From Polyangiaceae bacterium (lineage in GTDB: Bacteria > Myxococcota_A > Polyangia > Polyangiales > Polyangiaceae): a stretch of DNA of 32,022 bases. This document shows, one piece after another, positions 3,673-32,022 of the stretch. How positions within the stretch are numbered: position 1 is the first letter of the stretch; the number at the start of each line of letters is the position of its first letter. The stretch lies in the NCBI GenBank assembly GCA_029941785.1, contig JAPYTK010000042.1:1-32022 (forward strand), given 5' to 3'. A program made the position numbers and the translations under genes. Under the pieces are notes generated by a model, which searched no databases, had not been told where the DNA came from, and was given only the letters and a program-made list of their open reading frames with translations.

Positions 3673-3884
3673 GGTTCCTCCTCGTGGGGGCGCGGCGTTG
3701 TTGGGTTCAAATTGATTAGTAGCAAGCTGCATGCCGAATGCGGCGATAACGGCACCAGCATGCGAATGCGCCTAAACGAAGGTGCTTTTGATGAACGCTG
3801 GCAACTCGTTCGCCGTGTGAGCTGCGCAAGCGGCGTACACCTCTGCCTATGCCGCCCCCTAGCGGGCTAACACGCACAGAGCGT

Positions 3885-3966
3885 CGTCCACCTGCTGCCA
3901 CCCTAAATTGGCGCATACGAGATGTGAGGTTCGTCCGCTCCATGCCCCCTTCGATGGGTCGGACCG
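3885..3966 (-). repeat. Decayed copy of intergenic repeat R1 (copy E)
   Basis: Read on the minus strand, this stretch keeps the order of R1 landmarks: CATCGAAGGGGGCATGGAGC, then ACATCTCGTATGCGCCA, then GGCAGCAGGTGGAC. Two bases are lost where the other copies have the ATG, so the 13-codon frame is destroyed. It is much more diverged than copies A to D. The rest of the 3673-3978 gap shows nothing recognisable apart from the ribosome site of the gene starting at 3672. Confidence 0.45.
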
Positions 3967-3978
3967 GCGAGGAAAGAC

Positions 3979-10569: not shown

Positions 10570-10646
<77 letters not shown>

Positions 10647-16872: not shown

Positions 16873-19800
16873 ATGGCGCAGGCAAACATCGTAAAAGCTG
16901 GCATTCTCAAGGGCGTAACGGACACGAACTCCGATACGACCATGGCGGAAGACAAGGCGACGGAGACGAACATGATCGACGGCACGGCAACCGGCCCGGG
17001 GCCTGCTAGCAAGACGAGGAGCAAACGACGCCGTCGGCCGCAGCGCCCGCGCGGTTTGCGATTCGAGCGGAAGGTCACTGCCAAAGGAACCGATCCGCTC
17101 GATGACGTGACCTACGAGCGCCGGACGAGCGTCATCACCAACCCCGACGGTTCGGTCGTCTTCAAGATGGAGGGTGCCGAGATCCCTGCGGATTGGTCCC
17201 AGCTCGCGACCGACATCGTCGTGTCGAAGTACTACCGCAAGGCCGGCTTGTACGGTGACAAGAACCACGGCGAGACGAGCGTGCGGCAGGTGGTCTATCG
17301 CATTGCGCACACGATCCGCGAGGCGGGCGAGCGCTTCGGCGGCTATTTTGCCAGTCGCGAAGATGCCGATGCCTTCGAGGCGGAGCTGAGCTTCTTTTTG
17401 GTCAATCAATACGGCGCGTTCAATTCGCCGGTGTGGTTCAACTGCGGCCTGTGGCACGAGTACGAGATCAAGGGTAGCGGCGGCAACATGGCGTGGTCGG
17501 AGGGGAGCAAGGCCGACAGCCCCGAGGAGATCTTCGAGATCGACAATGCCTACGAGCGTCCCCAGTGTTCCGCTTGTTTCATCCAGACGGTTCAGGACGA
17601 CCTCATGTCGATCTACGACCTGGTCAAGCACGAGGCGCGACTGTTCAAGTACGGCTCGGGCACGGGAACGAACTTCAGCTCGATTCGTGGCAAACAAGAG
17701 AAGCTATCGGGTGGCGGCACGAGTTCGGGCTTGATGAGCTTTCTCGAGGTGCTCGACCGAGCGGCGGGCGCGACGAAGAGCGGTGGAACGACGCGCCGGG
17801 CGGCCAAGATGGTCTGCCTCGACATGGATCACCCTGAAATCGAAGACTTCATCAATTGGAAGGTGCGCGAAGAGAAGAAGGCCAAGGCGCTGATCGCAGC
17901 GGGTTATTCCTCGGACTTCAACGGCGACGCCTATCACACCGTGAGCGGACAGAACTCGAACAACTCCGTGCGCGTCTCGGACGAGTTCATGCGTGCCGCC
18001 CTGCTCGATCAAGGCGGAGCGACGCCGCCTGCCCCCAACGCCTCAGGTGTGCAGCCAAGTGCGCAGTGGCATACGCGTGCCCGTACCACGGGCGAGATCG
18101 TCAACACCTACAGCGCCAAGGAGCTGTGGCATCAGGTCGCCGACGCCGCCTGGACCTGCGCCGATCCGGGGCTGCAGTACGACACCACGATCAATCGTTG
18201 GCACACGTGCCCGAACACCGACCGCATTCGCGCGTCAAACCCCTGTTCGGAGTACATGTTCATCGATGACAGCGCTTGTAACCTGGCGAGTCTCAATCTG
18301 ACGAAGTACTTGACCGAGAACGACGCCACCGGCGAGCTGTCCTTCGACATCGACAAATACCGTCACGCGGCCCGCGTGTTCTTCACCGCCCAGGAAATTC
18401 TGGTCGATCTGTCGAGCTATCCCAATCGCAAGATCGCGAAGAATTCTCACGACTACCGTCCTCTCGGTCTCGGCTATGCCAACCTCGGCACGCTTCTGAT
18501 GCGTCTCGGGTTGGCCTACGACTCCGACGGCGGTCGGGCGGTCGCCGCGGCGCTCACGGGCATACTGTGTGGCAAGGCCTACGCGACCTCCGCCGAAATG
18601 GCTGGCACCAAGGGCAGCTTCGCTGGTTATGCCAAGAACGCCGAGCCGATGTTGCGCGTGATGGGCATGCATCGTGATGCGGCTTACGCCATCGATCGAG
18701 ACAACTGTCCCGAGGGTCTGTGGCGAGCAGCGTGCCAAGACTGGGACGAGGCGTACGAGCTCGGAAAGAAGAATGGTTTCCGTAACGCGCAGGCGACGGT
18801 TCTCGCGCCGACCGGCACCATCGGCTTGCTGATGGATTGCGACACGACCGGCGTTGAGCCTGACTTCGCGCTGGTGAAATTCAAGAAGCTGGCCGGCGGC
18901 GGTTACTTCAAGATCGTCAACCAGTCCGTTCCTGCGGCGCTCCAGGGCCTCGGGTACGCCAAGCACCAGATCCAAGAGATCGTGGCGTATGTCTCGGGCA
19001 CCAATACATTGTTGGCGGCACCACACATCAACCGCGCGAAGCTGATCGGTCTCGGGCTGACGGCCGAAGAACTCAACAAGGTCGAAGAAGCGCTTCCGAG
19101 CGTGTTCGATCTGGGACAGGGCTTTGCTCCGTGGGTCATTGGCGAGGAGGCCTATGTGCGTCTCGGCGTTCCCGGCTACTCCGCAGATGGTAGCGCTACG
19201 GGCAAGCGGGGTGATCTCCTGCGCCACCTCGGGTTCAGCGCAGAGGTCATTCAAGAGGCGAGCGATGTCATCGTTGGTCACATGACCATCGAGGGCGCGC
19301 CCCATCTCGATCCGGCGCATCTGCCGATCTTCGATTGCGCGAACCGATGCGGCCGTCTCGGCGAGCGATTCATCGAGCCCATGGCTCACGTGAAGATGAT
19401 GGGCGCGGTGCAGCCTTTCCTCAGCGGCGCGATCTCCAAGACCGTCAACATGCCGAACGAGGCGACGGTTGAAGAAGTGGCTGCGATCTACGAAGAAGGC
19501 TGGCGCCTCGGTCTCAAAGCGGTGGCTTTGTACCGCGATGGTTGCAAGGCATCGCAGCCGCTGTCAGCGAAGTCCGACAAGGACGACCAAGACACGGCCA
19601 CGGAGGTAAAGACCGAGGCTGTGGAGGCGACGGTGGCGACGCCAGCGCCGGAGGTTCCCCAGATCCACCCGACGGGTGTGAGGGTGCGCTTGCCTCGTAA
19701 ACGTACGGGTTTCACGCAGGAGGCACGCGTGGGCGGACACAAGATCTTCCTTCGCACCGGCGAATACATCGACGGGACCTTGGGCGAACTGTTCATCGAC

Positions 19801-20301
19801 ATGCACAAAGAAGGGGCGGCCTTCCGCTCGCTGATGAACTGCTTTGCGATGGCGGTCTCGGTTGGCCTTCAATACGGCGTGCCGCTGTCGACCTATGTCG
19901 AGCAGTTCACGTTCACTCGTTTCGAGCCGCAAGGCCCGGTCGACGGTCACGACAACATCAAGTTCGCGACCTCCATTGTCGATTACATGTTCCGCGTTCT
20001 CGGCGTCGAGTACCTCGAGCGCTACGACTTGGCTCATGTGCCTCCGACGCCCCCGACCATTCAGGATCCGTCCGAGACACGCGCGGAACAAGAAGCCGCA
20101 GTCGTGGAGACGGCTGTTGCCCAGGTGATCTCACCGTCCGCCAACTACCGCCAGGATGAGGCGGGCACCAGTGGTCTGGACGCGCAGCTCGACGAGATGA
20201 TGGGCGATGCACCGGTGTGCGACGGCTGTGGTCACATCACGGTGCGCAATGGTGCTTGTTACAGGTGCCTGAATTGCGGTAACTCGCTCGGCTGTAGCTG
20301 A
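16873..20301 (+). CDS. nrdJ: Adenosylcobalamin-dependent (class II) ribonucleoside-diphosphate reductase
   Basis: A protein of 1142 residues, normal for long class II enzymes. It makes deoxynucleotides using a cobalamin-derived radical and needs neither oxygen nor a second subunit. Visible signatures are the redox Cys in QCSACFIQ (about C235), the finger-loop motif NPCSE at 456-460 (N456, C458 as thiyl-radical site, E460), its redox partner in [12 protein letters not shown] (C469), and [21 protein letters not shown]-terminal to about 930 is a TSCPD-type module ([20 protein letters not shown]), and the end is Cys-rich ([16 protein letters not shown]) for thiol reduction. The N-terminal 65 residues are unusual, Thr/Asp-rich then basic ([16 protein letters not shown]). 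ATG 16942 is a possible later start. Confidence 0.95.
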
Positions 20302-20316: not shown

Positions 20317-20357
20317 CCCGCTTCAGGGCGCCCGCTTCAGGGCGTCCGCTTCAGGGA
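20317..20357. repeat. 14-bp tandem repeat, three copies, at a convergent gene junction
   Basis: CCCGCTTCAGGGCG at 20317-20330 is repeated exactly at 20331-20344 and with one change at 20345-20357. It follows a run of G at 20308-20316, so a GCGGG...CCCGC stem is possible. The third copy contains the alanine racemase stop codon (20351-20353). It lies between the ends of nrdJ and alr and could contribute to termination on both strands, but there is no U-tract. Confidence 0.6.
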
Positions 20358-21655
20358 TTGCGATAGAATCGCGGTACGCGCCGCGAGATGCTCGTGAGAC
20401 ATTCCCAGCTGATGCTGCCGGCGTGGTTGGCGAGTTCGTCGGCGCTGATCGCGTCGGTGCCCAGTCGCCCCGTCTGCTCACCGAGGATGACCACTTCGTC
20501 TCGTAGGCTCACCCCCTCGATGTCGGTGACGTCTACCATCGTCAGGTCCATCGAAACGGTGCCCACGATCGGGGCGCGTCTGCCGCAGACGAGCACTTCG
20601 CCGCCGCCTGACATCGTGCGGCTCATGCCGTCCGCGTAGCCCATCGGGAGCGTGGCGATACGGCTCGGGCGGGAGGCTCTCCAGGTGTGTCCGTAGCCGA
20701 CCGCTTCGCCAACCGCGATGTTGCGCACGGCGACGATTTCACTGAGCACGCGCATGGCGGGCTTGAGATTGGGTTGGCGGATCTGCGGAGCCTGGTGGGC
20801 AGGGCAGGGGTGCACGCCGAACAGGCCCAGTCCGGGGCGCACGAGGTCGAGTTGCGACTCCGGCAGGCGTAACATCGCCGCGGTGTTGGCCGCGTGACGC
20901 CACGTTGGACTGAAGCCTGCGGCGCGCACGGTTTCTTCCGCATGGCCAAAGCGCTCGAGCTGCGTTTGCGTGACCGAGAGGGAGTCGGCGTCGGCGCAAG
21001 CGAGATGCGTCATCAGCCCATCGACATGTAATTCGCGGGCCTTCTGTAGCGTGGCCAGGACCTCACCGAGTCCTTCTGGGCGCACGCCGAGCCGACCCAT
21101 ACCGGTGTCGATCTTGAGATGAACGGGGTAAGGCTCGGTCGATCGCGAGCCATGCTCGGCCAGGAAGCGCACCGCCCGGGCCAGGGAGTCGATCTGGGAG
21201 GCTTCGTAGACGACTGGCGTCAGCCGGTGTTCGATCAGGGCATCCAAGCCGTCGCGGTGCCGCCCGTAGTAGCCGCCCATCACGAGAATGGGCACGGTGA
21301 TCCCGGCCTCACGCAGCTCGATTCCCTCTTCGAGAAGTGCGACGCAAATCCCGTCCACCCGCGCTTGCTGAAGCGCAGTCGCAATGTTGCGCGCACCGTG
21401 ACCGTAGCCGTCCGCCTTGATCACCGCCCAGAGCTTGGCCCCACTCGATTTCAGGCAGGCGGTCAACTCGTGGAGGTTATGCCGAACCCGAGCCAGATCA
21501 ATTTCCGCGCGGGTGACGCGGGCGGCTTCTGCGGGGGCCGCACGCGGAGGTCTGAGAACGCGTAGCGCGGCATCGTGTTGTGACGAGTCGGTGGTCGCCT
21601 GAGACTCCACCGTCGCCGAATCGTCTGCCGAAGAGTGCATGTCCGCCTGTTTCAT
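20351..21655 (-). CDS. alr: Alanine racemase
   Basis: A protein of 434 residues with the two-domain fold III PLP racemase layout. The PLP lysine is K80 in AVIKADGYGHG, followed by LKIDTGMGRLGV, LDLVRPGLGLFGV, the GYGHTWRA segment, GYADGMSR and GTVSMDLTMVDVTD of the C-terminal domain, and WECLTSISRRVPRFY at the end. It interconverts L- and D-alanine for peptidoglycan. About 45 residues at the N-terminus (MKQADMHSSADDSATVESQA onward) are Ser/Asp-rich and absent from most relatives. ATG 21640, with AGGCGGAC just before it, is a possible alternative start that shortens this extension by 5 residues. It is convergent with nrdJ and 91 bases from the isomerase gene upstream on the same strand. Confidence 0.95.
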   Translation of the reverse strand: MKQADMHSSADDSATVESQATTDSSQHDAALRVLRPPRAAPAEAARVTRAEIDLARVRHNLHELTACLKSSGAKLWAVIKADGYGHGARNIATALQQARVDGICVALLEEGIELREAGITVPILVMGGYYGRHRDGLDALIEHRLTPVVYEASQIDSLARAVRFLAEHGSRSTEPYPVHLKIDTGMGRLGVRPEGLGEVLATLQKARELHVDGLMTHLACADADSLSVTQTQLERFGHAEETVRAAGFSPTWRHAANTAAMLRLPESQLDLVRPGLGLFGVHPCPAHQAPQIRQPNLKPAMRVLSEIVAVRNIAVGEAVGYGHTWRASRPSRIATLPMGYADGMSRTMSGGGEVLVCGRRAPIVGTVSMDLTMVDVTDIEGVSLRDEVVILGEQTGRLGTDAISADELANHAGSISWECLTSISRRVPRFYRNP

Positions 21656-21746
21656 CGATTATCCGAATGCCATCGTGTCGGCAAACATTCCCGAAGGACG
21701 GCCAAACAATCCGACCGGGCGCAAGACATATCGAGGGTGAGCGCGC

Positions 21747-22319
21747 CTACTGGCGGTAGATCTCAATTCGCTCGATCTCAATGGCCCGGCTGGGGCGCCC
21801 CTTGTCACCGGTTGGTACGTCCGCGATATCTTTGATTGCGTCGTGACCAGATGTCACCAGTCCGAAGACCGAGTGCCGCCCGTCCAAGTGTGGAGTGGGC
21901 ACCTCGGTGATGAAGAACTGCGATCCGTTGCTATGCGGCCCAGAATTGGCCATCGACACCACACCGGCACGGCTGTGTCGAAGTTCCTGAACACATTCAT
22001 CGCGGAAGGTGTATCCCGGATCACCCGTACCCCATTCGTCTTCGATGTCTTCGAAGCGGCTCTTCGGATCTCCACCTTGGATCACGAAGTTCCTAATAAT
22101 ACGATGGAATTTTAGACCGTCGTAAAACGGTGTGCCCTTTTTCCCCTCGCCGGTCTTCGGGTCTTTCCAGTCGATGGTACCCATCGCGAGGCCGACGAAA
22201 TTCGCAACGGTCTGCGGGGCGCGCTTTTCCTCAAGCCGTACGGTGATCTCACCGTGGTTTGTGACGATGCGGGCGCAGAGTTGCCCATCGCCGGGTACAT
22301 CAATCGGTGGAAATTTCAT
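21747..22319 (-). CDS. Cyclophilin-type peptidyl-prolyl cis-trans isomerase
   Basis: A protein of 190 residues from ATG 22319, or 196 from ATG 22337; neither has a good ribosome site. Cyclophilin landmarks are in order: APQTVANFVGLA, the active site FHRIIRNFVIQGGDP (F71, H72, R73), MANSGPHSNGSQFFIT with the binding-loop Gln and Phe, and LDGRHSVFGLV. It catalyses proline isomerisation in protein folding. No signal peptide is seen, so a cytoplasmic place is likely. The loop DWKDPKTGEGKKGTPFYDG is normal for the bacterial branch. It is on the same strand as alr and possibly transcribed ahead of it. The 153-base gap to the vWA gene (22320-22472) shows nothing I can name. Confidence 0.93.
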   Translation of the reverse strand: MKFPPIDVPGDGQLCARIVTNHGEITVRLEEKRAPQTVANFVGLAMGTIDWKDPKTGEGKKGTPFYDGLKFHRIIRNFVIQGGDPKSRFEDIEDEWGTGDPGYTFRDECVQELRHSRAGVVSMANSGPHSNGSQFFITEVPTPHLDGRHSVFGLVTSGHDAIKDIADVPTGDKGRPSRAIEIERIEIYRQ

Positions 22320-22472
22320 GCCGCAGGGCGCCATCATAGTCTGACGGATGAGCTTACAACAAGAGCAGACGCTGAATTTACGAAGTATTGTGCGCTGCCA
22401 GAATGTGTTCGCGAACGGATGTATTGTTGATTGTTCTCGGTATCTTAGGAGAGAACGATGGGTTACTTCGCC

Positions 22473-25400
22473 TCACAGGCGCCTCTTCTTACGACGCCGC
22501 TGTAGCAGGATTTCCACCGCCGTGAGCGGTCGACCGGCGGCTCGTCTCGACGACGGCGGCAAACTCATGGCTGGCGCGTCCTTTTGTTGCGGGGGGGGCG
22601 ACGGGGCGGCGGCCGGAGATGGTGGCGAGAGCCTGACCCTTGGCAGAGGAGTGATGGGAGCGGCTTGTGGCTCGACGTTTGCCGAGCTGGCCTGATGGCT
22701 CGGGCGGGAGGTGTTGCTCAGCAGCTTATCGAGTGTTTGTTGCGCCGCGTGCCTTCGCTCCGCTTCTTTCTCGTCTTGGATTTGCGCCGATTCACGAGCT
22801 TGGCCTCGAAGACGCTCGAGCCAGTCGTAGGCCGCTGTCGGGATCGCGAGTCGACGTGCAGCGACCATGAGGAGCATGGCCGCGGCCGCGATGAGGACCA
22901 AGAGCCAAGACACCGAGTCGTAGGCAAAGCGTCGCTTGCCCCGATCGTGAAAGAGTCCGGCCAGGGTGTCGCGTCGTTTGCCACCCGTGAGTGCGCTGAG
23001 GCGATCGAGCATGGCCAGGTCGCTGCCGTTGGGCCTTAGTTCTTCGCCTTTCGACAGGACCGCTCCGCTCGTCGCGACGGCCCGATTGGAGCCGCTGTCT
23101 CGCGCGACAGCGAGGTACGCCCCGGGCCGCGTCAACGGCAGCGTTGCGATGTAGCTGCCACCGCCTGCGGGCTCGAGCGCCACCTCACGTGAAAAACCTC
23201 CTGGTCCGCGAACCGTCGTGAGCAAGCGGCGGAACGATTCGCCTTCGCCGTTTTCGTCCAAGACGTTGGCTCGCAAGAAGAGCTGGCCTCCGACGATCTC
23301 GGACTTGAGATTGACGAGCGAATCGTCGCCGCTGCGGCTCACCGCGCGGGCCGTCTGGGCAATGAGGCGAGAGGCGTCCGACCAGTGGGTCCAAGCTGCG
23401 CCCCACGTCTTCAAATCGCTCGTAAAGACTGCCGCGCGGCCGACGCCGACGGACCACAGGGCGAGAATGGGGTCGTTCTCGGGACCACGAAGGAGTACGT
23501 CGCTGCGGCCCTTCGGAATCGTCACGACATAACCTTCGAGCGGCGGAGCGGCTCCGAAATCAACGCCAGCGATCGCACTTCCGCTGCCGCTCTGCGTGAC
23601 TCGAAAGGACTCCTCGACGATCGCGGATCGGGTCGCTGCGATCGTCTCCTGGGTGAACACTGCAGGGAGTCGGCGCGCGTCTTCGACGATGTAAAACCGC
23701 CCGCCACCCAAACGGGAGAGGGTCTCGAGCTTGCCGGTATCAGGGCCTTGACCGAGAGCCACGCAGCTCGTGGTGATCCGCTTCTGGCGCGCGGCGGTGT
23801 CGACCATCGCCTCGACCGCAGGGGAGATCTTCTCGGCATCCGCGCCATCGGCGAACAGCAGTACGTGCTTCAAATTAACCGACTTTTTCTCGAGCGCTCG
23901 GTACGCTTCCTGTAGCGCGACGTCGACATAGATGCCTCCCCCGCCCGGGGAGACGCCTCGAATGGCTGTCACGATCGCCTTCTTGTCCTTCACCGGTGCG
24001 AGCGCGACACTCCAAATGGGTGCGGTGTCGACGTGCAGGACACCGAGTTGGTCGCCGGTTCCCAACAGCTGAGCCGACCGGGCGGCACCTTCGTTGGCGA
24101 GCTGTAGCTTCGTGTGACCCCCGACGCGCATCCCCATCGAGCCGGAGATGTCGATCGCGATCACCTCGGCGAGGCTGGCTCGCCTCTTGTCTTGCTTCAG
24201 ATCGAAGGAGACCGGGGAGATGGATTCCAGTGGTGTGAGCGCATAACCCCCAGGCCCCATGCTGCGATCGCCACCGATCAACAGCAGGCCGCCTCCAATG
24301 TCTCGGACGTAGCTCGCCAGATCGTGGATCTGCTGCGGATCCAGACTGGCGGCGGGAATGTCCCCCATGACGATGAGGTCGTAGGTCGCCATCGCGGCGA
24401 TGTCGGTGGGAACCGATGGCGTACCCCCCTGGCGCGTCTCGAAGCCGGCCTGCTGAAGCGCGGAGGCAATGAAGTTCGTCTTGCCCGGATCACCGTCGAG
24501 CACGAGTGCTCGGGCAGGTCCTTTCACACGAACGAAGGCGCTCGCTTCGTTGTCCTCGGCGACCGCGTCGAGAGAGGGATCGACGGCGGAGATCTTGACG
24601 TCGTAACGGTGAAGGCCCCCCCGTTTTGCCACTTCGTCGATGCGTAAGACATCTTCCCCTTGCCGAACTTGGGTATGGGCTCGCCGGATCAGCTTGCCAT
24701 CGCGGTAGACGCGCACTTCGATTTTCGTTGCGCGGGGCGAGGCGACCACAAGCCGCATTGGCATCGTCTCGCCCTCGCGGGCTCTCGAAGGGGCATGCAG
24801 CGAGACGATCCGGACGTCGGGTAGAGTGCGTTGCTCGAGCGGGAGCACATCGATGGGTACATCGGCTGCCATGGCGGCGGTCGCGGCGGACATGGCATCG
24901 CCGCGCGTGACCACGCCGTCGGATATGAGGACCACCCGGGGTGAGGCGTCGGTGGGTAGCTCGGCCAAAGCGAGGCGCAAACCCGCCGCGATGTCGGTGC
25001 CGTCGCGCGCAACGCTTGCTTGTTGAGCCGAGGGGGCTTGCCGTTTGGGCCTGAGCGGGTCGAGGATCACCGCGTCAGCGCCGAAAACCACGGTGGCGAT
25101 GAGGTCCTCCTCGCGCATCGAAGCCTCGACCACGAGTCGCTCGGTGCGCAGGCGCTGTTTACTATTGGGCACCAGTTCGATCGACCGGCTGTTGTCGATG
25201 GCCAGAACGACTGCCAGTCGGTCCAGCGGCCGGCCTATCTCGACGTCGCTCGCGGCTCCCGTCGCACACAGCACGATCAGTCCGACCAAGACATCGCTCA
25301 GCGTCTCGCGAAAGCGATGCTGTCGACGGTGATGTCGCGTGAGGCGCCATGTGACCAGCACCATGGCGCCGAAGCCGAGCCACAGCGTCCAATGACGCGC

Positions 25401-25586
25401 GAAGCGAAAATAGCTTTCTCCGGCGATGTGGAGGCTCACAAGGGCAGTGAAAACGAGCGAGCCGAGGGAGGCGGCGAGGCTGAGCCAGAGCGCAGGGCGT
25501 CGCCTGAGCCCGGTGTCTCGCACGAGCCAAACCGCCGCAGCGGCGCAGGCGCCCGAAGCACCTACCACATGCAACCAAGCCGTCAC
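22473..25586 (-). CDS. Membrane protein with two vWA domains and a glutamine-amidotransferase-like domain
   Basis: GTG 25586 is chosen because it overlaps the preceding stop as GTGA and directly begins a membrane-type N-terminus; product 1037 residues. Three N-terminal helices (ASGACAAAAVWLV, ALWLSLAASLGSLVF, LWLGFGAMVLVTW) are followed by vWA domain 1 with MIDAS DNSRS at about 131-135. A beta region comes next, then a class-I-glutamine-amidotransferase-like segment (ALVLDGDPGKTNFI, YDLIVMGDIPA, GGGLLLIGGDRSM), and vWA domain 2 with canonical DISGS at about 479-483. A second beta region precedes one helix near 893-914 (SWLLVLIAAAAMLLMV). The tail of about 120 residues is a charged helix, then Pro/Ser-rich, then ends RRRKKRRL. 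The vWA domains probably sit in the envelope. It is the last gene of the operon. No partner or substrate is known. Confidence 0.85.
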   Translation of the reverse strand: MTAWLHVVGASGACAAAAVWLVRDTGLRRRPALWLSLAASLGSLVFTALVSLHIAGESYFRFARHWTLWLGFGAMVLVTWRLTRHHRRQHRFRETLSDVLVGLIVLCATGAASDVEIGRPLDRLAVVLAIDNSRSIELVPNSKQRLRTERLVVEASMREEDLIATVVFGADAVILDPLRPKRQAPSAQQASVARDGTDIAAGLRLALAELPTDASPRVVLISDGVVTRGDAMSAATAAMAADVPIDVLPLEQRTLPDVRIVSLHAPSRAREGETMPMRLVVASPRATKIEVRVYRDGKLIRRAHTQVRQGEDVLRIDEVAKRGGLHRYDVKISAVDPSLDAVAEDNEASAFVRVKGPARALVLDGDPGKTNFIASALQQAGFETRQGGTPSVPTDIAAMATYDLIVMGDIPAASLDPQQIHDLASYVRDIGGGLLLIGGDRSMGPGGYALTPLESISPVSFDLKQDKRRASLAEVIAIDISGSMGMRVGGHTKLQLANEGAARSAQLLGTGDQLGVLHVDTAPIWSVALAPVKDKKAIVTAIRGVSPGGGGIYVDVALQEAYRALEKKSVNLKHVLLFADGADAEKISPAVEAMVDTAARQKRITTSCVALGQGPDTGKLETLSRLGGGRFYIVEDARRLPAVFTQETIAATRSAIVEESFRVTQSGSGSAIAGVDFGAAPPLEGYVVTIPKGRSDVLLRGPENDPILALWSVGVGRAAVFTSDLKTWGAAWTHWSDASRLIAQTARAVSRSGDDSLVNLKSEIVGGQLFLRANVLDENGEGESFRRLLTTVRGPGGFSREVALEPAGGGSYIATLPLTRPGAYLAVARDSGSNRAVATSGAVLSKGEELRPNGSDLAMLDRLSALTGGKRRDTLAGLFHDRGKRRFAYDSVSWLLVLIAAAAMLLMVAARRLAIPTAAYDWLERLRGQARESAQIQDEKEAERRHAAQQTLDKLLSNTSRPSHQASSANVEPQAAPITPLPRVRLSPPSPAAAPSPPPQQKDAPAMSLPPSSRRAAGRPLTAVEILLQRRRKKRRL

Positions 25587-27541
25587 GGGCGCTCCGGTCC
25601 TTCCCGATGCATCGGTAGGGGCAATTTCGCGCGGCGCGGCTTGCGGGTGAAATAGGCGATGTCGAGCACGAGCAGTAGCAATGCCAATAGAGCGAGCCAC
25701 CAGGTGTGTGCTCGAAAGGCGGTCGCTGGCTCCTCCGTCGTTTCGCTGCCCTTCGGAAGCGTGGCCGGATCGAATGGTTGACGGAGGTTACTCTCTGCGG
25801 CCGAGGTTAGATTGACCGGGATCAGCACACTCGCGCGCTCGTCGCTCTTGTTCGCCGGCGAACGCCACGACAAGTGATAGTGACCCGCCTGTGTCGTATC
25901 GGGAACGACGGCGAGTCCTCGCCGGGACCGAATGGTAGTGGTCGTCCCGTTTGGCGAGCGTACCTCGACCTCCCGGCTGTGCGGGGACACCGCGACGCGA
26001 AGAGGTGCGCCCGCGACGGCTCCCTTGCGTTGGTCGCGGCTCTGGCGCCCTCGCGCTTGTTCCAGCAAATTGCGCATGAACAGCACGTACGATGCTTTGA
26101 GCGGCCAATTGCTCTCGCCGATGTCGAAGCCGACCAGCGTGCCCGAACCGGAGGCGAGCGAGAGATCCGCCACCAGCGCGCCGCGATCGGACTGCACCAA
26201 GGCCTGGTGCGGGCTGCGTAAGAGGAGCTTGCGGCTTTCTCGGACGAAGACGCCATCGAGGGTGAGGAAACGAAGCCGAGGATCGATGCGTCGCCACGAC
26301 GTGACGCGAGGTACAGCGATAGGCTCTCCGACCTGTACGCCGAAGCATGGTCCCGGAGGGGGGTTGACGACCAGCAGGTCCCGTCCGGGTACGGTCTTCG
26401 GACATGCGCCCTCGATGACGACGAAGGCTTCGACGCTCGTTGTGGTGCCTTCGAGAAGCGCGGCCAGATCGCCCCGCCGTACGTCAGCCTGGGGATCGGA
26501 CGCCAGTGCTCTGACGAGCCACGGGGAGGGGTCGCCCTTTGCCGCGAGGACCACCTTCAGCCGCTCGGCGTCCGGGATCCTCCCGTAAGCGAGATCGTCG
26601 ACAGGCATCCCGTCGTGGGGAGAGAGCTCGAACACGACCCCCTTGCCGTAATCGCCGGCTGATGGCTGAAAATTGAGTGTGACCGGGAGGCGCTGCTTCG
26701 GCGAGATCATGACTCGCCGCGATGCCAAGATATCGGATGCTCCGCGTTGACGCATGGTGACGAAGACCTCGCGGGATGCGTCGCCGAAGTTCGCGACCAA
26801 AACGAAACCCTCGACGGTTGGCGTGCCGCGCGCCGCGTCCCGGCCGGCTCTCACGTCAACCCGGATGATGCTGGTGTTGTCGATCGCCTGACCGACCTTG
26901 ATGAACTCCAGCGGGAGGGCGGAGCGGTTGAGCCGCTCGGGGTGAGCGATTTGCCCGTCCGTGAGCACCACGATCCGGCGGCTTCCACCCAGCCCCTTGA
27001 GACGTGCGCTCGCCAGGGCGATTCCCTCCCCGAGGTCCCCTTCGACATCCCGAGCACGCAAGCTGGCGATCGTACGTTTGAGTCGTCGAATGTCTCTCTC
27101 TCGCGGGAGAATGACCCGAGCGGATCGACCCGCCTCGATGAGCATGGCGTCACTACCAGGCGCGAGGGCATCGACCCATTCGCTCGCGAGTTGTTTGGCC
27201 CGATCGATACGAGCTACTGATCCGTGATGGGCAGACATCGACGCGCTGGTATCGATGACGAGCGCGATGTGATCGCCATCGTGGGTCTTGCTGCGACTTG
27301 CAGGTGCTGCCGCCGCGAGACCCAGCGCGATCAGAACAAGCGCCTGGAGCAACAGGGGCAGCTGCATCACCAAGCGCTTGAAGGGGGACCGGGCCATCAG
27401 ATCGCGGCGCGCTTGTGCCCACAGCCAGGTCGACGAGAGCCGACGTCGCTCGCGACGGATCTTCAAGATGTACAGCGCGATGAGCGGGAGGAGCAATCCC
27501 AACGCGGCCAGGCCCCACGGCGACAGAAACTCGAGCTTCAT
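25583..27541 (-). CDS. BatA-like membrane protein with vWA domain
   Basis: A protein of 652 residues. The N-terminus MKLEFLSPWGLAALGLLLPL continuing IALYILKIRRERRR is the signature of the 'aerotolerance regulator N-terminal' (BatA) family. A second helix (QLPLLLQALVLIALGLAAAA) precedes a vWA domain with MIDAS DTSAS at 97-101 and the loop LTDGQIAHPE. A long beta-rich region of unknown fold follows, and a final helix TWWLALLALLLLVLDIAYF with a basic end (TRKPRRAK). Such proteins occur with DUF58 and MoxR ATPases and are thought to help assemble or stabilise envelope complexes. Its ATG overlaps the DUF58 stop (ATGA at 27541-27538), and its stop overlaps the next gene's GTG. Confidence 0.87.
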   Translation of the reverse strand: MKLEFLSPWGLAALGLLLPLIALYILKIRRERRRLSSTWLWAQARRDLMARSPFKRLVMQLPLLLQALVLIALGLAAAAPASRSKTHDGDHIALVIDTSASMSAHHGSVARIDRAKQLASEWVDALAPGSDAMLIEAGRSARVILPRERDIRRLKRTIASLRARDVEGDLGEGIALASARLKGLGGSRRIVVLTDGQIAHPERLNRSALPLEFIKVGQAIDNTSIIRVDVRAGRDAARGTPTVEGFVLVANFGDASREVFVTMRQRGASDILASRRVMISPKQRLPVTLNFQPSAGDYGKGVVFELSPHDGMPVDDLAYGRIPDAERLKVVLAAKGDPSPWLVRALASDPQADVRRGDLAALLEGTTTSVEAFVVIEGACPKTVPGRDLLVVNPPPGPCFGVQVGEPIAVPRVTSWRRIDPRLRFLTLDGVFVRESRKLLLRSPHQALVQSDRGALVADLSLASGSGTLVGFDIGESNWPLKASYVLFMRNLLEQARGRQSRDQRKGAVAGAPLRVAVSPHSREVEVRSPNGTTTTIRSRRGLAVVPDTTQAGHYHLSWRSPANKSDERASVLIPVNLTSAAESNLRQPFDPATLPKGSETTEEPATAFRAHTWWLALLALLLLVLDIAYFTRKPRRAKLPLPMHREGPERP

Positions 27542-28419
27542 GGCCGGCTCCGCGACACGATGGCTCGAATGACAGGCTCGATCGACTCGTCGCTTCGGTG
27601 GCGGACGTAACAGGCGCCATGTTTGCGGGCCCAGGCGCGGAGCTGTTCACATAGGCCGATCAACCGCGCGGTGTAAGCCTCGATGGCGGTCGCGTCGATC
27701 GTCAGCTCGACGAGTTGACCGGTTTCGGCGTCCTCGAAGGCCCAGTCTCCTTCGTGCTCGGGTTCCATTTCCTCGCGTGCCAGTACGTGGGCCAACACCA
27801 CATCGTGTCCCGCTGCCACGGCTCGGGAGAGTGAGCCGAGCACCGGACCTGGGTCGAAGAAGTCCGATATCACAAGCAGAAGACCCGGCCGGGACGTCTC
27901 CCGCAACACTCGCTCGACGGTGGCCGCGAGGTCCGTGCGGCCCTTCGGGGCGATGGCGTCGAGAGTCCGGAGCAAGGTCGCGAGTCCGCCACGCCCTCGC
28001 GCCGGAGGGTGCAGGCGGGCGCCACCGTCCCGCGCGGTGATCACCTGTGCGCGCTCGGAGTCTGCCAGCGCCAAATATCCCATGGCGGCTGCGAGGCGCT
28101 TGGCGGCATCGAGCTTGCTAGGCTGACCGAAGTCCAAGGACGCAGAGGCGTCGCAGACAAGGCGCGCGATGAAGTCTTCTTCGGCGCGAAATACCTTGAC
28201 CACCGGCTGGCCCGAGCGCGCCATGGCGGCCCAATCGATGCGTCGAACGTCGTCACCGGCGGTGTAGGGCCGGTGTTCCTGAAATTCAGCGGAACCGCCT
28301 CGCCGCTTCGCGATGTGCTCGCCGGCTCTTCCAGACCGCGCACGGACCTCCATCCGGTGTTTGAGTGCCTCGAGTTCGCGAACGAAACTCGCGTCGAGCA
28401 GCGGCAAAGCCGTTGTCAT
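27538..28419 (-). CDS. DUF58 domain protein (vWA-like)
   Basis: A protein of 293 residues. The DUF58 signature EFQEHRPYTAGDDVRRIDWA is at about 45-64, followed by SGQPVVKVFRAEED and a vWA-like MIDAS DASAS at 90-94, with LLLVISDFFDPG later. No membrane segment is found, so it is a cytoplasmic peripheral protein, which fits this family. DUF58 proteins are nearly always encoded with MoxR AAA ATPases; no moxR is inside the window, but the operon continues off the right edge. Both ends overlap neighbours by 4 bases (start ATGA 28419-28416 with the permease stop, stop with the BatA-like start). Confidence 0.9.
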   Translation of the reverse strand: MTTALPLLDASFVRELEALKHRMEVRARSGRAGEHIAKRRGGSAEFQEHRPYTAGDDVRRIDWAAMARSGQPVVKVFRAEEDFIARLVCDASASLDFGQPSKLDAAKRLAAAMGYLALADSERAQVITARDGGARLHPPARGRGGLATLLRTLDAIAPKGRTDLAATVERVLRETSRPGLLLVISDFFDPGPVLGSLSRAVAAGHDVVLAHVLAREEMEPEHEGDWAFEDAETGQLVELTIDATAIEAYTARLIGLCEQLRAWARKHGACYVRHRSDESIEPVIRAIVSRSRP

Positions 28420-30227
28420 GTCTCGCTCGTCGGCGCCTCGGTCTCGTCGTTGCCTACTGCCGTCGCCTCCGCTTCGCTGTTGCCTACTGCCGTCGCCTCC
28501 GCTTCGCTGTTGCCGTGTGGATGTGCACGCGCTGCGTCCTCGGCGGCCAGTCGCTCATCGGCCGCGCAAAGAAGTGCCTCGTGTTCGTCGATGATCGTGT
28601 TGCAGCGGCGGGAGGCCTTGCGCAAGAGCACGAGCCCAACAACGGCGTAAAGAGTCGCGGCAATCAGTTGCGCGGCGACAATGGCCGGCTTGTGACCGGC
28701 CTCGAAGGAGGCGATCGCATAGAACATATAAAATGGCGACGGAGCGGCCAGAAAATGGCCGATGTCGATCCCGCCATGGCTCGATCTTTCGATGCCGGCC
28801 ACAACCGCCATGACCCAAGGTACGGTGCTGGCGATGAAGCCGTACACGACCAGCATGAGTCTTCCTGTTCCGCCGTGGCTGGACTTGGCGCGGTGCCACG
28901 CGGCAACGCCTACCAAGAAGATGAAGAACCCGATCGGGTAACTACAGATCAGGCCGAGGGCGAACAACTCTTCGGTCCAAGGCTTGGTGCTGGGGAGCGC
29001 GAGCATCAAGAAGGTCGTGCCGACCATCACCGTAAAGAGCAGGAGCGCTACGAGCAGTTGCAAGCGCGCGGCCTTCAGAACGCCGGGGGAAAGAAAATGC
29101 CTCACGCGGCTCGCCTCGCGCAGCATCGCTCTTACCCTCCGGGAAGGACCGATGGCCTCCCCGGCGAAAAGAAAACAACCGAAAACCAAATGGGTAAAGA
29201 AAATGACAACGGTAGGGACGAATGCCATCGTCGTGTACCCGCTTGAGGAGAAGAAGCCTCCGACGCCGCCGGAAGCGAAGGTTTTGTGGAAGACGGGCAA
29301 CATCGCGACGCATGCGACCACCGGTGAACAACCGATATACCACCTCTTCAAGCCATAGGAGCGGTCGTCCGTGACGCTCGTGAGGTTGCTCTTGGTGACC
29401 TCGTAGAGGAACCACGCGGGCATGGCGACGAAGGCGCAGGGCAAGACGATGAGATAGCAAAAGTAAATCCAGTCGAAGGGCGCGCGGACGAAGGCCATGG
29501 GCAACCACACGGGCGTCCCAGAGTCGACGGCGGGCCAAACTGCGTGAGCGGCGGCGGAAAGACCGAACCCAAAGACGCCGTGGGAAAACGCGGTGATCGG
29601 CACGGCGAGGAGCAGCGTGACGAGGAGAGCCGTCCGCATGTGATTCATCTTTGAGCTGATCGCCAGTCCGAAGGCCACCGCCAGGGCCGCGAACAGGAAG
29701 AGCAGCGCGAAGGCCGCGACAACTTCCATGGGCGTGATCCCGCCGAAGAGAAAGGACAAGGCTCCGACCGGAGCGAGCATGACGATGTATTGGCCGATGG
29801 CCGTGAAGGCCGACCAAAACTTCCCGCGCGCGATTTCAGCGGGGCGCATGCCCGTGAGCAGGACGGCCTCCCAGGTGTGACCTTCGCGCTCGGAGGCGAT
29901 GCTGTTTGCGGCGAGGGCAGGTCCGATCAATCCAACCAAATAGAAGGCCAAGGAAAAGAACACATGGAAGATCAGCTGGCCCACCTCTGCGGGGTTGGCG
30001 TGATCGGCGGACATGCCCCCCCCGATGGAGGTGAGCAACATCGTCATCAGGATGGTGACGATCATCAGGATGTACGGCGTGCGGGGCATCCTCGCGCTCT
30101 GGCGCATCTCCCGCATCCACAGCGGGTTGGGGTCGTAGCGAAAGCGCAGCCAGCGATGCCGTAGCCGGGCGCTCAGCTGCGTCGAGACCGGCGCAGAAGG
30201 CGTCTCGATGCCGGTCTGTACGCTCAT
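28416..30227 (-). CDS. ABC-2 type transporter permease, 12 or so membrane segments
   Basis: A protein of 603 residues. After about 50 soluble residues (including YDPNPLWMREMRQSARMP, typical of ABC-2 permeases) come roughly 12 hydrophobic segments, for example YILMIVTILMTMLLTSI, FHVFFSLAFYLVGLIGPALA, VVAAFALLFLFAALAVAFGL and LLVALLLFTVMVGTTFLMLA. The motif SIASEREGHTWEAVLLTGMRPAEIARGK (here cut as SIASEREGHTWE and LLTGMRPAEIARGK) is the coupling region common to this family. It forms the membrane channel for the ATPase encoded just upstream. The C-terminal 60 residues are cytoplasmic and acidic and carry a 10-residue repeat. The start overlaps the ATPase stop as ATGA. The substrate is unknown. 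Confidence 0.87.
   Translation of the reverse strand: MSVQTGIETPSAPVSTQLSARLRHRWLRFRYDPNPLWMREMRQSARMPRTPYILMIVTILMTMLLTSIGGGMSADHANPAEVGQLIFHVFFSLAFYLVGLIGPALAANSIASEREGHTWEAVLLTGMRPAEIARGKFWSAFTAIGQYIVMLAPVGALSFLFGGITPMEVVAAFALLFLFAALAVAFGLAISSKMNHMRTALLVTLLLAVPITAFSHGVFGFGLSAAAHAVWPAVDSGTPVWLPMAFVRAPFDWIYFCYLIVLPCAFVAMPAWFLYEVTKSNLTSVTDDRSYGLKRWYIGCSPVVACVAMLPVFHKTFASGGVGGFFSSSGYTTMAFVPTVVIFFTHLVFGCFLFAGEAIGPSRRVRAMLREASRVRHFLSPGVLKAARLQLLVALLLFTVMVGTTFLMLALPSTKPWTEELFALGLICSYPIGFFIFLVGVAAWHRAKSSHGGTGRLMLVVYGFIASTVPWVMAVVAGIERSSHGGIDIGHFLAAPSPFYMFYAIASFEAGHKPAIVAAQLIAATLYAVVGLVLLRKASRRCNTIIDEHEALLCAADERLAAEDAARAHPHGNSEAEATAVGNSEAEATAVGNDETEAPTSET
28449..28514 (-). repeat. 30-bp tandem repeat in the permease gene
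   Basis: Bases 28449-28478 and 28479-28508 are identical, and six bases of a third unit follow. The unit encodes GNSEAEATAV in the acidic tail of the permease. The period keeps frame, so copy number can vary without breaking the protein. The perfect identity suggests recent expansion. Confidence 0.9.
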
Positions 30228-31222
30228 GACGGACCTCCGTTGTTCCCGGTGGCTTGGAGAAAGATGCGCTCGAGGTCGCTGTGGGCTTGCTGCACGCCAG
30301 TGACTCCGAAACCTCGATGCACGAGGTGCCCGACGATGTTGGCGACTGCCGTTTCATCGCCGACGTAGGTGATGTCGAGCCCGTGCGCCGTGGTTCGAAC
30401 GCCGGTGATGCCCGGGCCTCCCTGCAGCTGTGCCGCCGCTTGGGCTGCGTCGCCGAGCAAGCGGACTTGGATGACACGCGCGTTGTAGTTTGGGGCGGGG
30501 CCACCGCCGGCCGCGTGGGCATGAGGATCCGTGCTCTGTCGGTGCGCGAGCTGCGCGGCGATGGAATCGATAGGACCCGCGACGACGATTTGTCCGCGCT
30601 CGATGATCCCGACCGAGGTACACACGTCGGCGAGCTCGCTCAGGATATGGGAGCTGAGGATGATGGTCTTGCCGAGCGATTGCAGTTCGCCGAGCAGATC
30701 ACGAATTTCGATGCGTGCGCGTGGGTCGAGATCGCTTGCCGGCTCGTCGAGAATCAACACCTTGGGATCGTGGAGCAAGATCCGCGCGACCTGCAGTCGC
30801 TGCTTTTGGCCCTTGGAAAGTGTTGCGACGAGCTGATCTTGCAAGGAGGTGATGTCGGTGAGCTCGAGTACGGCTTCGACGACGGACAGAGCAGGTATTC
30901 GGTACGCGTCAGCAAAGAACTCGAGGTACTCCCGCACGCTGATCCGCTCGTAGATGCCGGCATGGTCCGCCATGTAGCCGATGATTCGGCGGACCTCCTC
31001 TGGAGCCATGGTCACGTCCATCCCATCGATCTCGACCCGGCCCGCGGCGGGCTCCAAGAGGGTGGCCAGGATGCGAATCGTCGTCGTCTTGCCGGCGCCG
31101 TTTGGTCCGATGAAGCCGAAGATCTCTCCTTGGTTGATGTCGAAACTGACGTCCCGCAAAACCGGCGGGCCACCGAAGTTGTGCCACAGATGTCGCACCC
31201 GAATGGCGGGACAGTCGCTCAT
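30224..31222 (-). CDS. ABC transporter ATP-binding protein
   Basis: A protein of 332 residues with the full ABC set: Walker A GPNGAGKTT at 39-47, signature LSKGQKQR from 134 (Lys where Gly is usual), Walker B VLILDEPASDLDP with E159, and H191 in SSHILSEL. The Q-loop region reads GYMADHAGIYE, with Asp rather than Gln, as I recall from the ABC-2 subgroup with GYxPDHFG. Residues beyond 220 form an extra domain with a His/Ala/Gly-rich linker (HRQSTDPHAHAAGGGPAP) and an ACT-like alternation (ARVIQVRLLGD, GVRTTAHGLDITYVGDE). It energises the permease encoded directly downstream. Its ATG overlaps the stop of the gene before it as ATGA. Confidence 0.92.
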   Translation of the reverse strand: MSDCPAIRVRHLWHNFGGPPVLRDVSFDINQGEIFGFIGPNGAGKTTTIRILATLLEPAAGRVEIDGMDVTMAPEEVRRIIGYMADHAGIYERISVREYLEFFADAYRIPALSVVEAVLELTDITSLQDQLVATLSKGQKQRLQVARILLHDPKVLILDEPASDLDPRARIEIRDLLGELQSLGKTIILSSHILSELADVCTSVGIIERGQIVVAGPIDSIAAQLAHRQSTDPHAHAAGGGPAPNYNARVIQVRLLGDAAQAAAQLQGGPGITGVRTTAHGLDITYVGDETAVANIVGHLVHRGFGVTGVQQAHSDLERIFLQATGNNGGPS

Positions 31223-32022
31223 CGTCGGCCACCGTAACCGACGACGCGAATCAAGAGGCGATTGTGCTCGAGTTTGATGCCTGCGTCCCGGGTCTCGCCA
31301 TCACCGCCGTCTACCTGGGCGAGTAAGACAGGGACATCGTCGGGGAACCAAATACGGTGTGGGGAACTCTGCTGCGAGATGGCGATCCAGGCATGCTCCA
31401 AACCCGGTGAGACCTTGGCCATCGTCTCGCCGCAATGACCGCTCTCGATCGTGAATAGAGCCGGCGGAGTCGAGGGCTCTAGGCATTGAGGGATGGCTGA
31501 AAGCGCATGGGAGTTCACCGTCTCGCCGTCCGCCAGCTTGGCCCCAAATTTGAGGGTTCCTGATGGCAGCCAAAGCACGAGACCGCGCAGATTCCTTCCC
31601 GTACGATTGACCACGGTCACGCCGCCCGAGCCGTCGTTGAGGAGGGAAATCGAGCCCGGAAGATCGATTGGGCTGTTGTCCCTCACGATGGCAGTTTGCC
31701 AGGGGCGTACCTGAAGATTCTCGAGACGCAAGGCGTCGCGTACCACGCGCAGCTCGGCGAGTGCCGATCCGTTGTCGTCGATCGCCGCGCCGACGACGCT
31801 GCCTTGGTGGTTGGTGCCGACGCCGAGGGTTGTCGCCCGCGGCCCGAAGAAGCTTCGCCAGCGGGTCGCGTGGCCGTGGGTTGAGCCGGCGCCGAATTCG
31901 GCGAGGACGAGGCGTCTCGATCGATCGGAACACCCTTTGGCGAAGGTGCCAACCAAGGCGATCAAGAGGAAGGTGCCGAGAGAGAGAATCGGGAGCGCGC
32001 GAAGGGAGTGCAGAGGGCGGTC
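31219..32022 (-). CDS. Membrane-anchored protein of unknown function (5' end outside window)
   Basis: The frame is open to the last base of the window, so the N-terminus is missing. The first readable residues (RALPILSLGTFLLIALVGTF) form a membrane helix followed by AKGCSD, and the remaining 245 residues look like a beta-rich soluble domain, e.g. NRTGRNLRGLVLWLPSG, PALFTIESGHCGETMAKV and RIWFPDDVPVLLAQVDGG. The end (IKLEHNRLLIRVVGYGGRR) overlaps the start of the ABC ATPase by 4 bases. It is therefore part of the vWA/ABC operon. No known domain is recognised; it may be the extracytoplasmic partner of the transporter. Confidence 0.75.
   Translation of the reverse strand, partial: DRPLHSLRALPILSLGTFLLIALVGTFAKGCSDRSRRLVLAEFGAGSTHGHATRWRSFFGPRATTLGVGTNHQGSVVGAAIDDNGSALAELRVVRDALRLENLQVRPWQTAIVRDNSPIDLPGSISLLNDGSGGVTVVNRTGRNLRGLVLWLPSGTLKFGAKLADGETVNSHALSAIPQCLEPSTPPALFTIESGHCGETMAKVSPGLEHAWIAISQQSSPHRIWFPDDVPVLLAQVDGGDGETRDAGIKLEHNRLLIRVVGYGGRR

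What the first reader, a model, noticed from the sequence alone, without database searches (positions are those of the whole stretch)
22473..32022. An envelope operon in which every junction is a 4-base overlap
Stops and starts overlap as ATGA at 31219-31222, 30224-30227, 28416-28419 and 27538-27541, and as GTGA at 25583-25586. The set joins an ABC-2 exporter to three vWA-type proteins (DUF58, BatA-like, double vWA). Related sets occur in several phyla but, as far as I know, without an assigned function. The strict coupling implies fixed stoichiometry, as in a complex where vWA proteins bridge a transporter and a MoxR-type chaperone.
Basis: partly seen in the sequence, partly recalled or inferred. 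Interest (0 to 1): 0.55.

Follow-up and report, generated by a model that had tools for sequence, protein, structure and literature searches.

The report
Exporter joined to MoxR-vWA chaperone operon
This is the second half of an eight-gene cell-envelope operon of myxobacteria that joins a membrane transporter to a set of chaperone-like proteins; its tight gene overlaps are mostly ordinary, but the two sets stay together across relatives even when the operon is broken, so they probably form one machine of unknown cargo.

Summary
The five 4-base overlaps are real. The window is a complete contig, and the operon runs on into another contig of the same genome (C53). The whole operon has eight genes: a ~600-aa membrane protein, MoxR, X1 (a periplasmic DUF4350-like protein), ABC ATPase, ABC permease, DUF58, BatA-like vWA protein and double-vWA protein. 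Four-base overlaps are common in these genomes (38 of 119 same-strand neighbour pairs). Only the X1-ATPase and ATPase-permease junctions are near-invariant in relatives (31/31 and 33/34); DUF58-BatA is not (12/45). In 13 of 28 resolved relatives the operon is split in two, yet both halves are kept: 33 of 58 relatives have both, 20 neither, 5 only one. A more distant myxobacterial lineage carries the same parts in another order. BatA and the double-vWA protein are one polypeptide in 4 loci. Predicted topology puts BatA, double-vWA and X1 in the periplasm; only DUF58 shares the cytosol with MoxR. I read it as an ABC-2-type envelope machine with a MoxR/vWA assembly or gating set: a new variant of a known kind. 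Its substrate is unknown.

The parts
31219..32022 (-). X1, C-terminal 267 aa of a ~681-aa protein (signal peptide, Ig-like domain, ThuA/DUF4350-like domain, two TM helices, periplasmic C-terminal beta domain); cut by the contig end, 5' part on contig C53:2-1261(-)
   Evidence: No Pfam or NCBIfam hit for the fragment; homologue alignment; complementary halves on C53 and C42; model of the L091 homologue pLDDT 89.7, pTM 0.89
30224..31222 (-). ABC transporter ATP-binding subunit (ABC-2 exporter type; GldA/DrrA/NosF/ABCA-like)
   Evidence: PF00005 112.5 bits; GldA model TIGR03522 216 bits, below its cut-off 402.6; solved relatives ABCA1/3/4/7, NosF, LptB; Walker A and B in 59 of 59, S-K-G-M/Q signature in 57 of 59 homologues
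28416..30227 (-). ABC-2 permease, 603 aa, 10-12 predicted TM helices
   Evidence: PF12698 39.8 bits, PF12679 and PF01061 over cut-off; hydropathy
27538..28419 (-). DUF58 protein, soluble (cytosolic) with vWA-type DxSxS motif
   Evidence: PF01882 148 bits; no TM in 6 of 7 sequences examined; DxSxS in 68 of 69 homologues
25583..27541 (-). BatA-like membrane protein, three TM helices, vWA domain predicted periplasmic
   Evidence: PF07584 39 bits, PF13519 53.5 bits; topology; DxSxS in 67 of 71 homologues
22473..25586 (-). double-vWA membrane protein with GATase1-like segments, 1037 aa, large part predicted periplasmic
   Evidence: PF13519 two stretches, PF07090; relatives of PDB 2gk3, 3soz, 3rht, 3ibs, 4jdu; both MIDAS motifs in 80 of 82 homologues
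31219..31222 (-). ATGA overlap X1 stop / ATPase start
   Evidence: available in 31 of 31 relative junctions
30224..30227 (-). ATGA overlap ATPase / permease
   Evidence: 33 of 34
28416..28419 (-). ATGA overlap permease / DUF58
   Evidence: 21 of 36
27538..27541 (-). ATGA overlap DUF58 / BatA-like
   Evidence: 12 of 45
25583..25586 (-). GTGA overlap BatA-like / double-vWA
   Evidence: 52 of 66

Best explanation
It is one inner-membrane, periplasm-facing machine made of two modules. Module A is an ABC-2-type transporter (ATPase plus 10-12 TM permease) with X1, a non-enzymatic periplasmic DUF4350/ThuA-like protein, as its accessory subunit. Module B is a MoxR-DUF58-BatA-double-vWA set with a ~600-aa membrane protein. 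The most likely working: MoxR and the cytosolic vWA protein DUF58 use ATP to assemble, remodel or gate the membrane complex. X1, BatA and double-vWA, through their periplasmic domains, receive or fold a component that the ABC transporter exports or pushes across the inner membrane. SHOWN: gene content, order, conservation, the 31/31 and 33/34 coupled junctions, co-occurrence after operon fission, the same parts in another order in a distant lineage, BatA/double-vWA fusion ORFs, conserved ATPase and MIDAS motifs. PREDICTED: topology and X1 fold. INFERRED: physical complex, MoxR/vWA acting on the transporter, export. UNKNOWN: substrate and phenotype.
For: (1) X1 has MoxR directly upstream in 59 of 63 unique loci and the ATPase directly downstream in 58 of 63; 3 of the 4 and 3 of the 5 exceptions lie at a contig edge, the fourth MoxR exception (L155) has a MoxR match just under my threshold, and the other two ATPase exceptions (L125, L141) have low-scoring ATPase matches. 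(2) Presence: of 58 relatives 33 have both X1 and a BatA orthologue, 3 BatA only, 2 X1 only, 20 neither (Fisher p 1.9e-10, not corrected for shared descent). (3) Both halves are kept in 13 of 28 resolved genomes where the operon is split. (4) In genomes outside the order, dVWA lies upstream of X1: for G118, (600-aa-like)-MoxR-DUF58-BatA-dVWA-ABC-2-like permease-X1-ATPase-ABC-2-like protein. (5) BatA and double-vWA are one ORF in 4 loci. (6) ATPase Walker motifs 59/59, MoxR Walker motifs 56/56, MIDAS 68/69, 67/71 and 80/82. (7) Topology agrees with the published periplasmic vWA domain of the Bat-type protein BB0173 (PMC5700661, abstract). (8) The next genes downstream, cyclophilin and alanine racemase, were found in none of 20 relatives' loci, so the set is not just part of a larger syntenic block.
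Against: The own genome and most relatives also carry a paralogous MoxR-DUF58-BatA-dVWA operon or BatA paralogue; the own one (C33) has no ABC genes, so module B works without an exporter. The operon splits often. DUF58 goes with the ABC half in G018, G025 and G035, so module borders are fuzzy. No substrate, no phenotype and no direct interaction data. Three genomes (G019, G027, G033) have BatA but no X1 found; contig ends may explain them but this was not proven.
Confidence: 0.5

Rival explanations
1. Two independent envelope systems that happen to share a transcript: an ABC-2 exporter with its accessory protein X1, and a Bat-type MoxR-DUF58-vWA set, co-regulated but not a complex.
For: Fission at the border in 13 of 28 resolved genomes; an ABC-free paralogous set in the same genome (C33); non-coupled DUF58-BatA junctions.
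Against: MoxR stays directly upstream of X1 in the split loci; the halves co-occur across genomes; the association recurs with another order in a distant lineage.
Confidence: 0.25
2. The ABC pair does not export but transmits force to the periplasm, as described for NosFY-NosD, while MoxR/vWA proteins do NorQD-like insertion, so the operon matures a periplasmic or outer-membrane metalloprotein or complex.
For: NosF and LptB are among the solved relatives of the ATPase; all four vWA domains keep MIDAS-type motifs; large periplasmic partner X1 without conserved Cys or His; NorQD is a published MoxR/vWA metal-insertion pair (PMC13036017 and PMC9976466, search listings and abstract starts only).
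Against: ABC ATPases all resemble each other and ABCA lipid transporters score higher; no NosD-like or metalloenzyme gene in the set; the NosDFY mechanism is recalled, not read here.
Confidence: 0.15
3. Bat/RL3499-type envelope-integrity or stress operon in which the ABC genes are accessory passengers.
For: Same MoxR-DUF58-BatA-vWA core; RL3499-RL3502 mutation is reported (title of a cited reference) to cause morphology and envelope defects.
Against: X1-ATPase-permease is the most rigidly coupled part of the operon; total bat deletion in Leptospira biflexa gave no growth, morphology or oxidative-stress phenotype (PMC3557215 abstract).
Confidence: 0.1

Closest known systems
MoxR-DUF58-vWA envelope operons (Bacteroides/spirochaete Bat loci, Rhizobium RL3499-RL3502)
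   Same: MoxR AAA+, DUF58, BatA-N+vWA protein, second vWA membrane protein; periplasmic vWA domain as shown for BB0173 (PMC5700661 abstract)
   Different: An ABC-2 transporter and the X1 accessory protein lie between MoxR and DUF58; no BatD/TPR proteins found; an extra ~600-aa membrane protein
Archaeal DUF4350 (arCOG01314)-vWA-MoxR predicted secretion or membrane-remodelling complex (Makarova et al. 2015, PMC5898192, section 3.2 read)
   Same: Signal-peptide-bearing DUF4350/GldG-like extracytoplasmic protein encoded with a vWA protein and a MoxR-family ATPase; Ig-like domains
   Different: Archaeal loci as described carry S-layer-type Ig proteins; DUF58, BatA and an ABC-2 pair are not described in that section; X1 has two TM helices and a C-terminal periplasmic domain rather than one C-terminal TM
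GldA-GldF-GldG gliding-associated ABC transporter
   Same: GldA-like ATPase, ABC-2 permease, large periplasmic auxiliary protein
   Different: Scores below the GldA and GldF cut-offs; X1 has no GldG (TIGR03521/PF09822) match; true PF09822 proteins occur elsewhere in these genomes
MoxR-vWA ternary conflict systems (Kaur et al. 2020, PMC7159879, passages read; author name recalled)
   Same: MoxR-vWA core plus third components, common in multicellular bacteria
   Different: No VMAP, iSTAND or effector domains found; periplasm-facing membrane set; no conflict-type domain variability seen

Membership tests
MoxR-DUF58-vWA (RL3499/Bat-like) operon class | MoxR (AAA_3) gene in the operon | tested here: met
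   C53:1273-2298, 70.6% identical to the L054 MoxR; directly upstream of X1 in 59 of 63 loci
MoxR-DUF58-vWA (RL3499/Bat-like) operon class | DUF58 gene | tested here: met
   PF01882 148.4 bits, cut-off 23.4
MoxR-DUF58-vWA (RL3499/Bat-like) operon class | BatA N-terminal domain plus vWA, and a second vWA membrane protein | tested here: met
   PF07584, PF13519 and two VWA_2 stretches over cut-off
MoxR-DUF58-vWA (RL3499/Bat-like) operon class | envelope or morphology phenotype on mutation | not testable with these tools
   No genetics; the RL3499 paper (PMC3133104) is not held
Bacteroides Bat operon sensu stricto | BatD and TPR/SH3 (BatB/C/E-like) components | tested here: not met
   No TPR, SH3 or BatD family in the proteins scanned
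GldAFG transporter | GldA equivalog score | tested here: not met
   TIGR03522 216.3 bits, cut-off 402.6
GldAFG transporter | GldF equivalog score | tested here: not met
   TIGR03518 21.6 bits, cut-off 288.5
GldAFG transporter | GldG/ABC_transp_aux protein | tested here: not met
   No GldG or PF09822 match in 34 X1 members; hhalign no similarity, but that GldG alignment was rough
DUF4350 family | match to PF14258 | tested here: inconclusive
   18 of 34 X1 members match at E up to 0.1, best 6.2e-5; the curated cut-off was not shown; ThuA-like fold match 1t0b Z 11.3, 180 residues, rmsd 3.6
MoxR-vWA ternary conflict systems | VMAP, iSTAND or effector third component | tested here: inconclusive
   No such Pfam match in the set and only generic ATPase or weak PADLOC hits; bpMoxR model 42.6 bits on the L054 MoxR, well under AAA_3 at 209
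NosDFY-type transporter | NosD periplasmic partner | tested here: inconclusive
   No NosD-like family found among operon proteins; NosF only one of many ATPase relatives

The most novel reading that the evidence does not exclude
An ATP-driven envelope assembly machine that combines two energy inputs, a MoxR/vWA ring and an ABC-2 mechanotransmitter, on one set of periplasmic receptors (X1, BatA, double-vWA) to fold, load or insert a periplasmic or outer-membrane component: a fusion of NorQD-like and NosFY-like logic found in Polyangiales and, rearranged, in a second myxobacterial lineage.
Probability: 0.15. Interest if true: 0.75.

Novelty: new variant of a known kind. Interest (0 to 1): 0.42.

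Why it matters
MoxR-DUF58-vWA operons are widespread and their function is unsettled. A lineage where the set is tied to an ABC-2 transporter, with a clearly coupled X1-ATPase-permease core and an ABC-free paralogue in the same genome, offers a clean comparison: it says which parts are core, and gives a testable client (the transporter) for the MoxR/vWA chaperones. The same link of a DUF4350-like protein, vWA and MoxR was predicted in archaea as a secretion complex (PMC5898192), so an answer here could reach further.

Tried and rejected
Rejected: overlap strictness as evidence of stoichiometry. Rejected: X1 as a GldG/PF09822 protein (hhalign, though several GldG rows were picked from uncertain frames, so that comparison is weak). 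Rejected: an anti-phage system; only generic ATPase or weak matches in PADLOC. Tried with little gain: PDB sequence search with X1 (two chance hits) and with the permease (none); Foldseek on X1 (single-domain hits only) and on the ~600-aa protein (model pLDDT 67, no match under E 0.8); VIA list dominated by Ig-like domains; Rfam on the window: only the tRNA. The phylum-wide X1 search (20 of 188 genomes) scored only 6 candidates per genome, so absences there are weak. Junction counts use 80 named loci, + strand only, mostly Polyangiaceae and relatives, not corrected for relatedness; 'available' means that a start codon sits at the overlap, not that it is used. The intact/split tally is by hand. 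BatA orthologues were taken as one search hits of about 190 bits or more (or two partial hits of one gene); weaker hits are the paralogue. My ABC signature pattern was too narrow (23 of 59) and was corrected (57 of 59); my H-loop pattern there missed 38 of 59 ATPases, so I make no claim on it. Literature: nine paper searches found no paper on an ABC exporter joined to a MoxR-DUF58-vWA operon in myxobacteria; subscription journals are mostly not held.
Full report
OBSERVATION. The five overlaps are present as described. Pfam confirms the family calls. The window is the entire contig C42, 32,022 bases, of a 6.03-Mb genome in 415 contigs, so the missing start could not be read in the window.

EXTENSION. 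In relatives the gene before the ATPase is a 680-750-aa protein, here called X1, preceded by MoxR and a ~600-aa membrane protein without a Pfam family. In the own genome X1 is found in exactly two pieces: profile positions 3-423 at C53:2-1204 and 419-689 at C42:31222-32019. The last bases of the window and the first of C53 share 17 bases (the window's last two bases differ), and the protein halves overlap in RPLHS. C53 then holds MoxR (1273-2298, minus) and the 599-aa gene (2390-4189, minus). The full operon is therefore 599aa-MoxR-X1-ATPase-permease-DUF58-BatA-dVWA. The X1-MoxR gap is 11 bp and the MoxR-599aa gap 91 bp.

ARE THE OVERLAPS SPECIAL? By a crude gene caller, 38 of 119 same-strand neighbour pairs in relatives' flanks and 32 of 68 close pairs have a 4-base overlap start; 7 of 21 on six other contigs of this genome. 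In 80 named loci of relatives, counting adjacent pairs on the plus strand, the overlap is available at: 600aa-MoxR 9 of 22, MoxR-X1 23 of 32, X1-ATPase 31 of 31, ATPase-permease 33 of 34, permease-DUF58 21 of 36, DUF58-BatA 12 of 45, BatA-dVWA 52 of 66. A DUF1415 gene sits between DUF58 and BatA in 8 loci. So the rigid unit is X1-ATPase-permease.

CONSERVATION AND FISSION. Named hits are Polyangiaceae and relatives: Sorangium, Polyangium, Minicystis, a Sandaracinaceae MAG, many MAGs. Of 63 unique X1 loci, 59 have MoxR directly upstream and 58 the ATPase directly downstream. The MoxR exceptions are three contig ends and L155, whose MoxR match lies just under my threshold; the ATPase exceptions are three contig ends and L125 and L141, whose ATPases score low. 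Among 58 relatives, 33 have X1 and a BatA orthologue, 3 BatA only, 2 X1 only, 20 neither; Fisher p 1.9e-10, not corrected for descent (one further weak X1 hit, G041, counted as absent). Of the 33 with both, 14 are contiguous (G008, G011, G012, G015, G022, G023, G028, G030, G031, G036, G044, G048, G053, G054), one has a ~7-kb insert (G043), 13 are split (G002, G005, G007, G016, G018, G020, G021, G025, G026, G032, G034, G035, G050) and 5 cannot be resolved because of contig ends (G001, G010, G017, G024, G058) (hand tally). In the complete genome G034 the halves are about 460 kb apart. The split falls after the permease in most; after DUF58 in G018, G025 and G035. Loss of linkage with retention of both halves argues for shared function more than linkage itself does.

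ANOTHER ORDER. The phylum search gave weak X1 hits in six genomes outside the order (best E per genome 1e-9 to 3e-16). Their surroundings hold the same parts rearranged: in G118, a weak 600aa match, MoxR, DUF58, BatA, dVWA, an ABC-2-like protein, X1, ATPase and another ABC-2-like protein; dVWA also lies upstream of X1 in G081, G101 and G209.

PARTS. The ATPase keeps Walker A and B in 59 of 59 and the S-K-G-M/Q signature in 57 of 59; its solved relatives include ABCA lipid transporters, NosF and LptB. The permease has 10-12 predicted TM helices. MoxR keeps both Walker motifs in 56 of 56; MIDAS-type motifs are kept in DUF58 (68 of 69), BatA (67 of 71) and both vWA domains of dVWA (80 of 82). X1 modelled well (pLDDT 89.7, pTM 0.89): an Ig-like domain at 20-129, a ThuA-like domain (1t0b, Z 11.3, 180 residues, rmsd 3.6, spanning 130-465), two TM helices at about 386-443 and a C-terminal beta domain. 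18 of 34 X1 members match DUF4350 weakly. No Cys or His column is conserved at 85%, so it is probably not an enzyme. The ~600-aa protein modelled poorly. BatA and dVWA are one ORF in L065, L094, L114 and L175.

TOPOLOGY. BatA has a short TM hairpin with 7-10 Lys/Arg in its loop and a basic C-terminal tail; dVWA and X1 show the same pattern of basic loops. By the positive-inside rule the vWA domains of BatA and dVWA and the large domains of X1 are periplasmic. This agrees with the periplasmic vWA domain reported for the Bat-type protein BB0173 (PMC5700661 abstract). DUF58 is soluble. MoxR could therefore contact DUF58, the ABC ATPase and cytosolic loops, but not the BatA or dVWA vWA domains directly.

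PARALOGUE. The own genome has a second set on C33: 627aa-MoxR-DUF58-BatA-dVWA with no ABC genes. Most relatives show a second, weaker BatA hit. The comparison suggests a five-gene core to which X1-ATPase-permease was added, or from which it was lost; direction not tested.

LITERATURE. The nearest published idea is an archaeal DUF4350-vWA-MoxR complex predicted to be a secretion system, with DUF4350 likened to GldG (PMC5898192, section 3.2 read). Rhizobium RL3499-RL3502 is cited as causing envelope and morphology defects (reference title and a passage in PMC5700661; the paper itself is not held). Deletion of all bat genes in Leptospira biflexa had no growth, morphology or oxidative-stress phenotype (PMC3557215 abstract). 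No paper on an ABC exporter in such an operon of myxobacteria turned up in nine searches.

VERDICT. A real, conserved eight-gene envelope system of Polyangiales, of a known general kind (MoxR-DUF58-vWA) with an unusual ABC-2 module. The overlap pattern itself is close to ordinary. The function and substrate remain open; the two modules most likely form one machine.

Noticed in passing
L054:9097-9744, L057:10336-11010, L058:2839-3546: A DUF1415 gene is inserted between DUF58 and BatA in these three and in 8 named loci of relatives; it is not seen in this window.
   Followed up: partly
L054:897-3048, L057:17180-19530: Two oligopeptide-type ABC ATPase genes (oligo_HPY domain shown for L054) follow the operon in several relatives but not here.
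   Followed up: no
contig C33 (L016:6-8624): ABC-free paralogous operon 627aa-MoxR-DUF58-BatA-dVWA in the same genome.
   Followed up: partly
L065, L094, L114, L175: BatA and double-vWA fused in one ORF.
   Followed up: yes
L119:7028-22034: The two halves of the operon lie side by side on opposite strands, facing each other.
   Followed up: no
window 10570-10646 (-): tRNA-Met(CAT) gene.
   Followed up: no
window 16873-20301 (+): A 1142-aa ORF next to the alanine racemase-like gene, not analysed.
   Followed up: no
window 20351-22337 (-): An alanine racemase-like ORF (name by eye, not tested) and a cyclophilin (PF00160) follow the operon; neither was found in 20 relatives' loci.
   Followed up: partly
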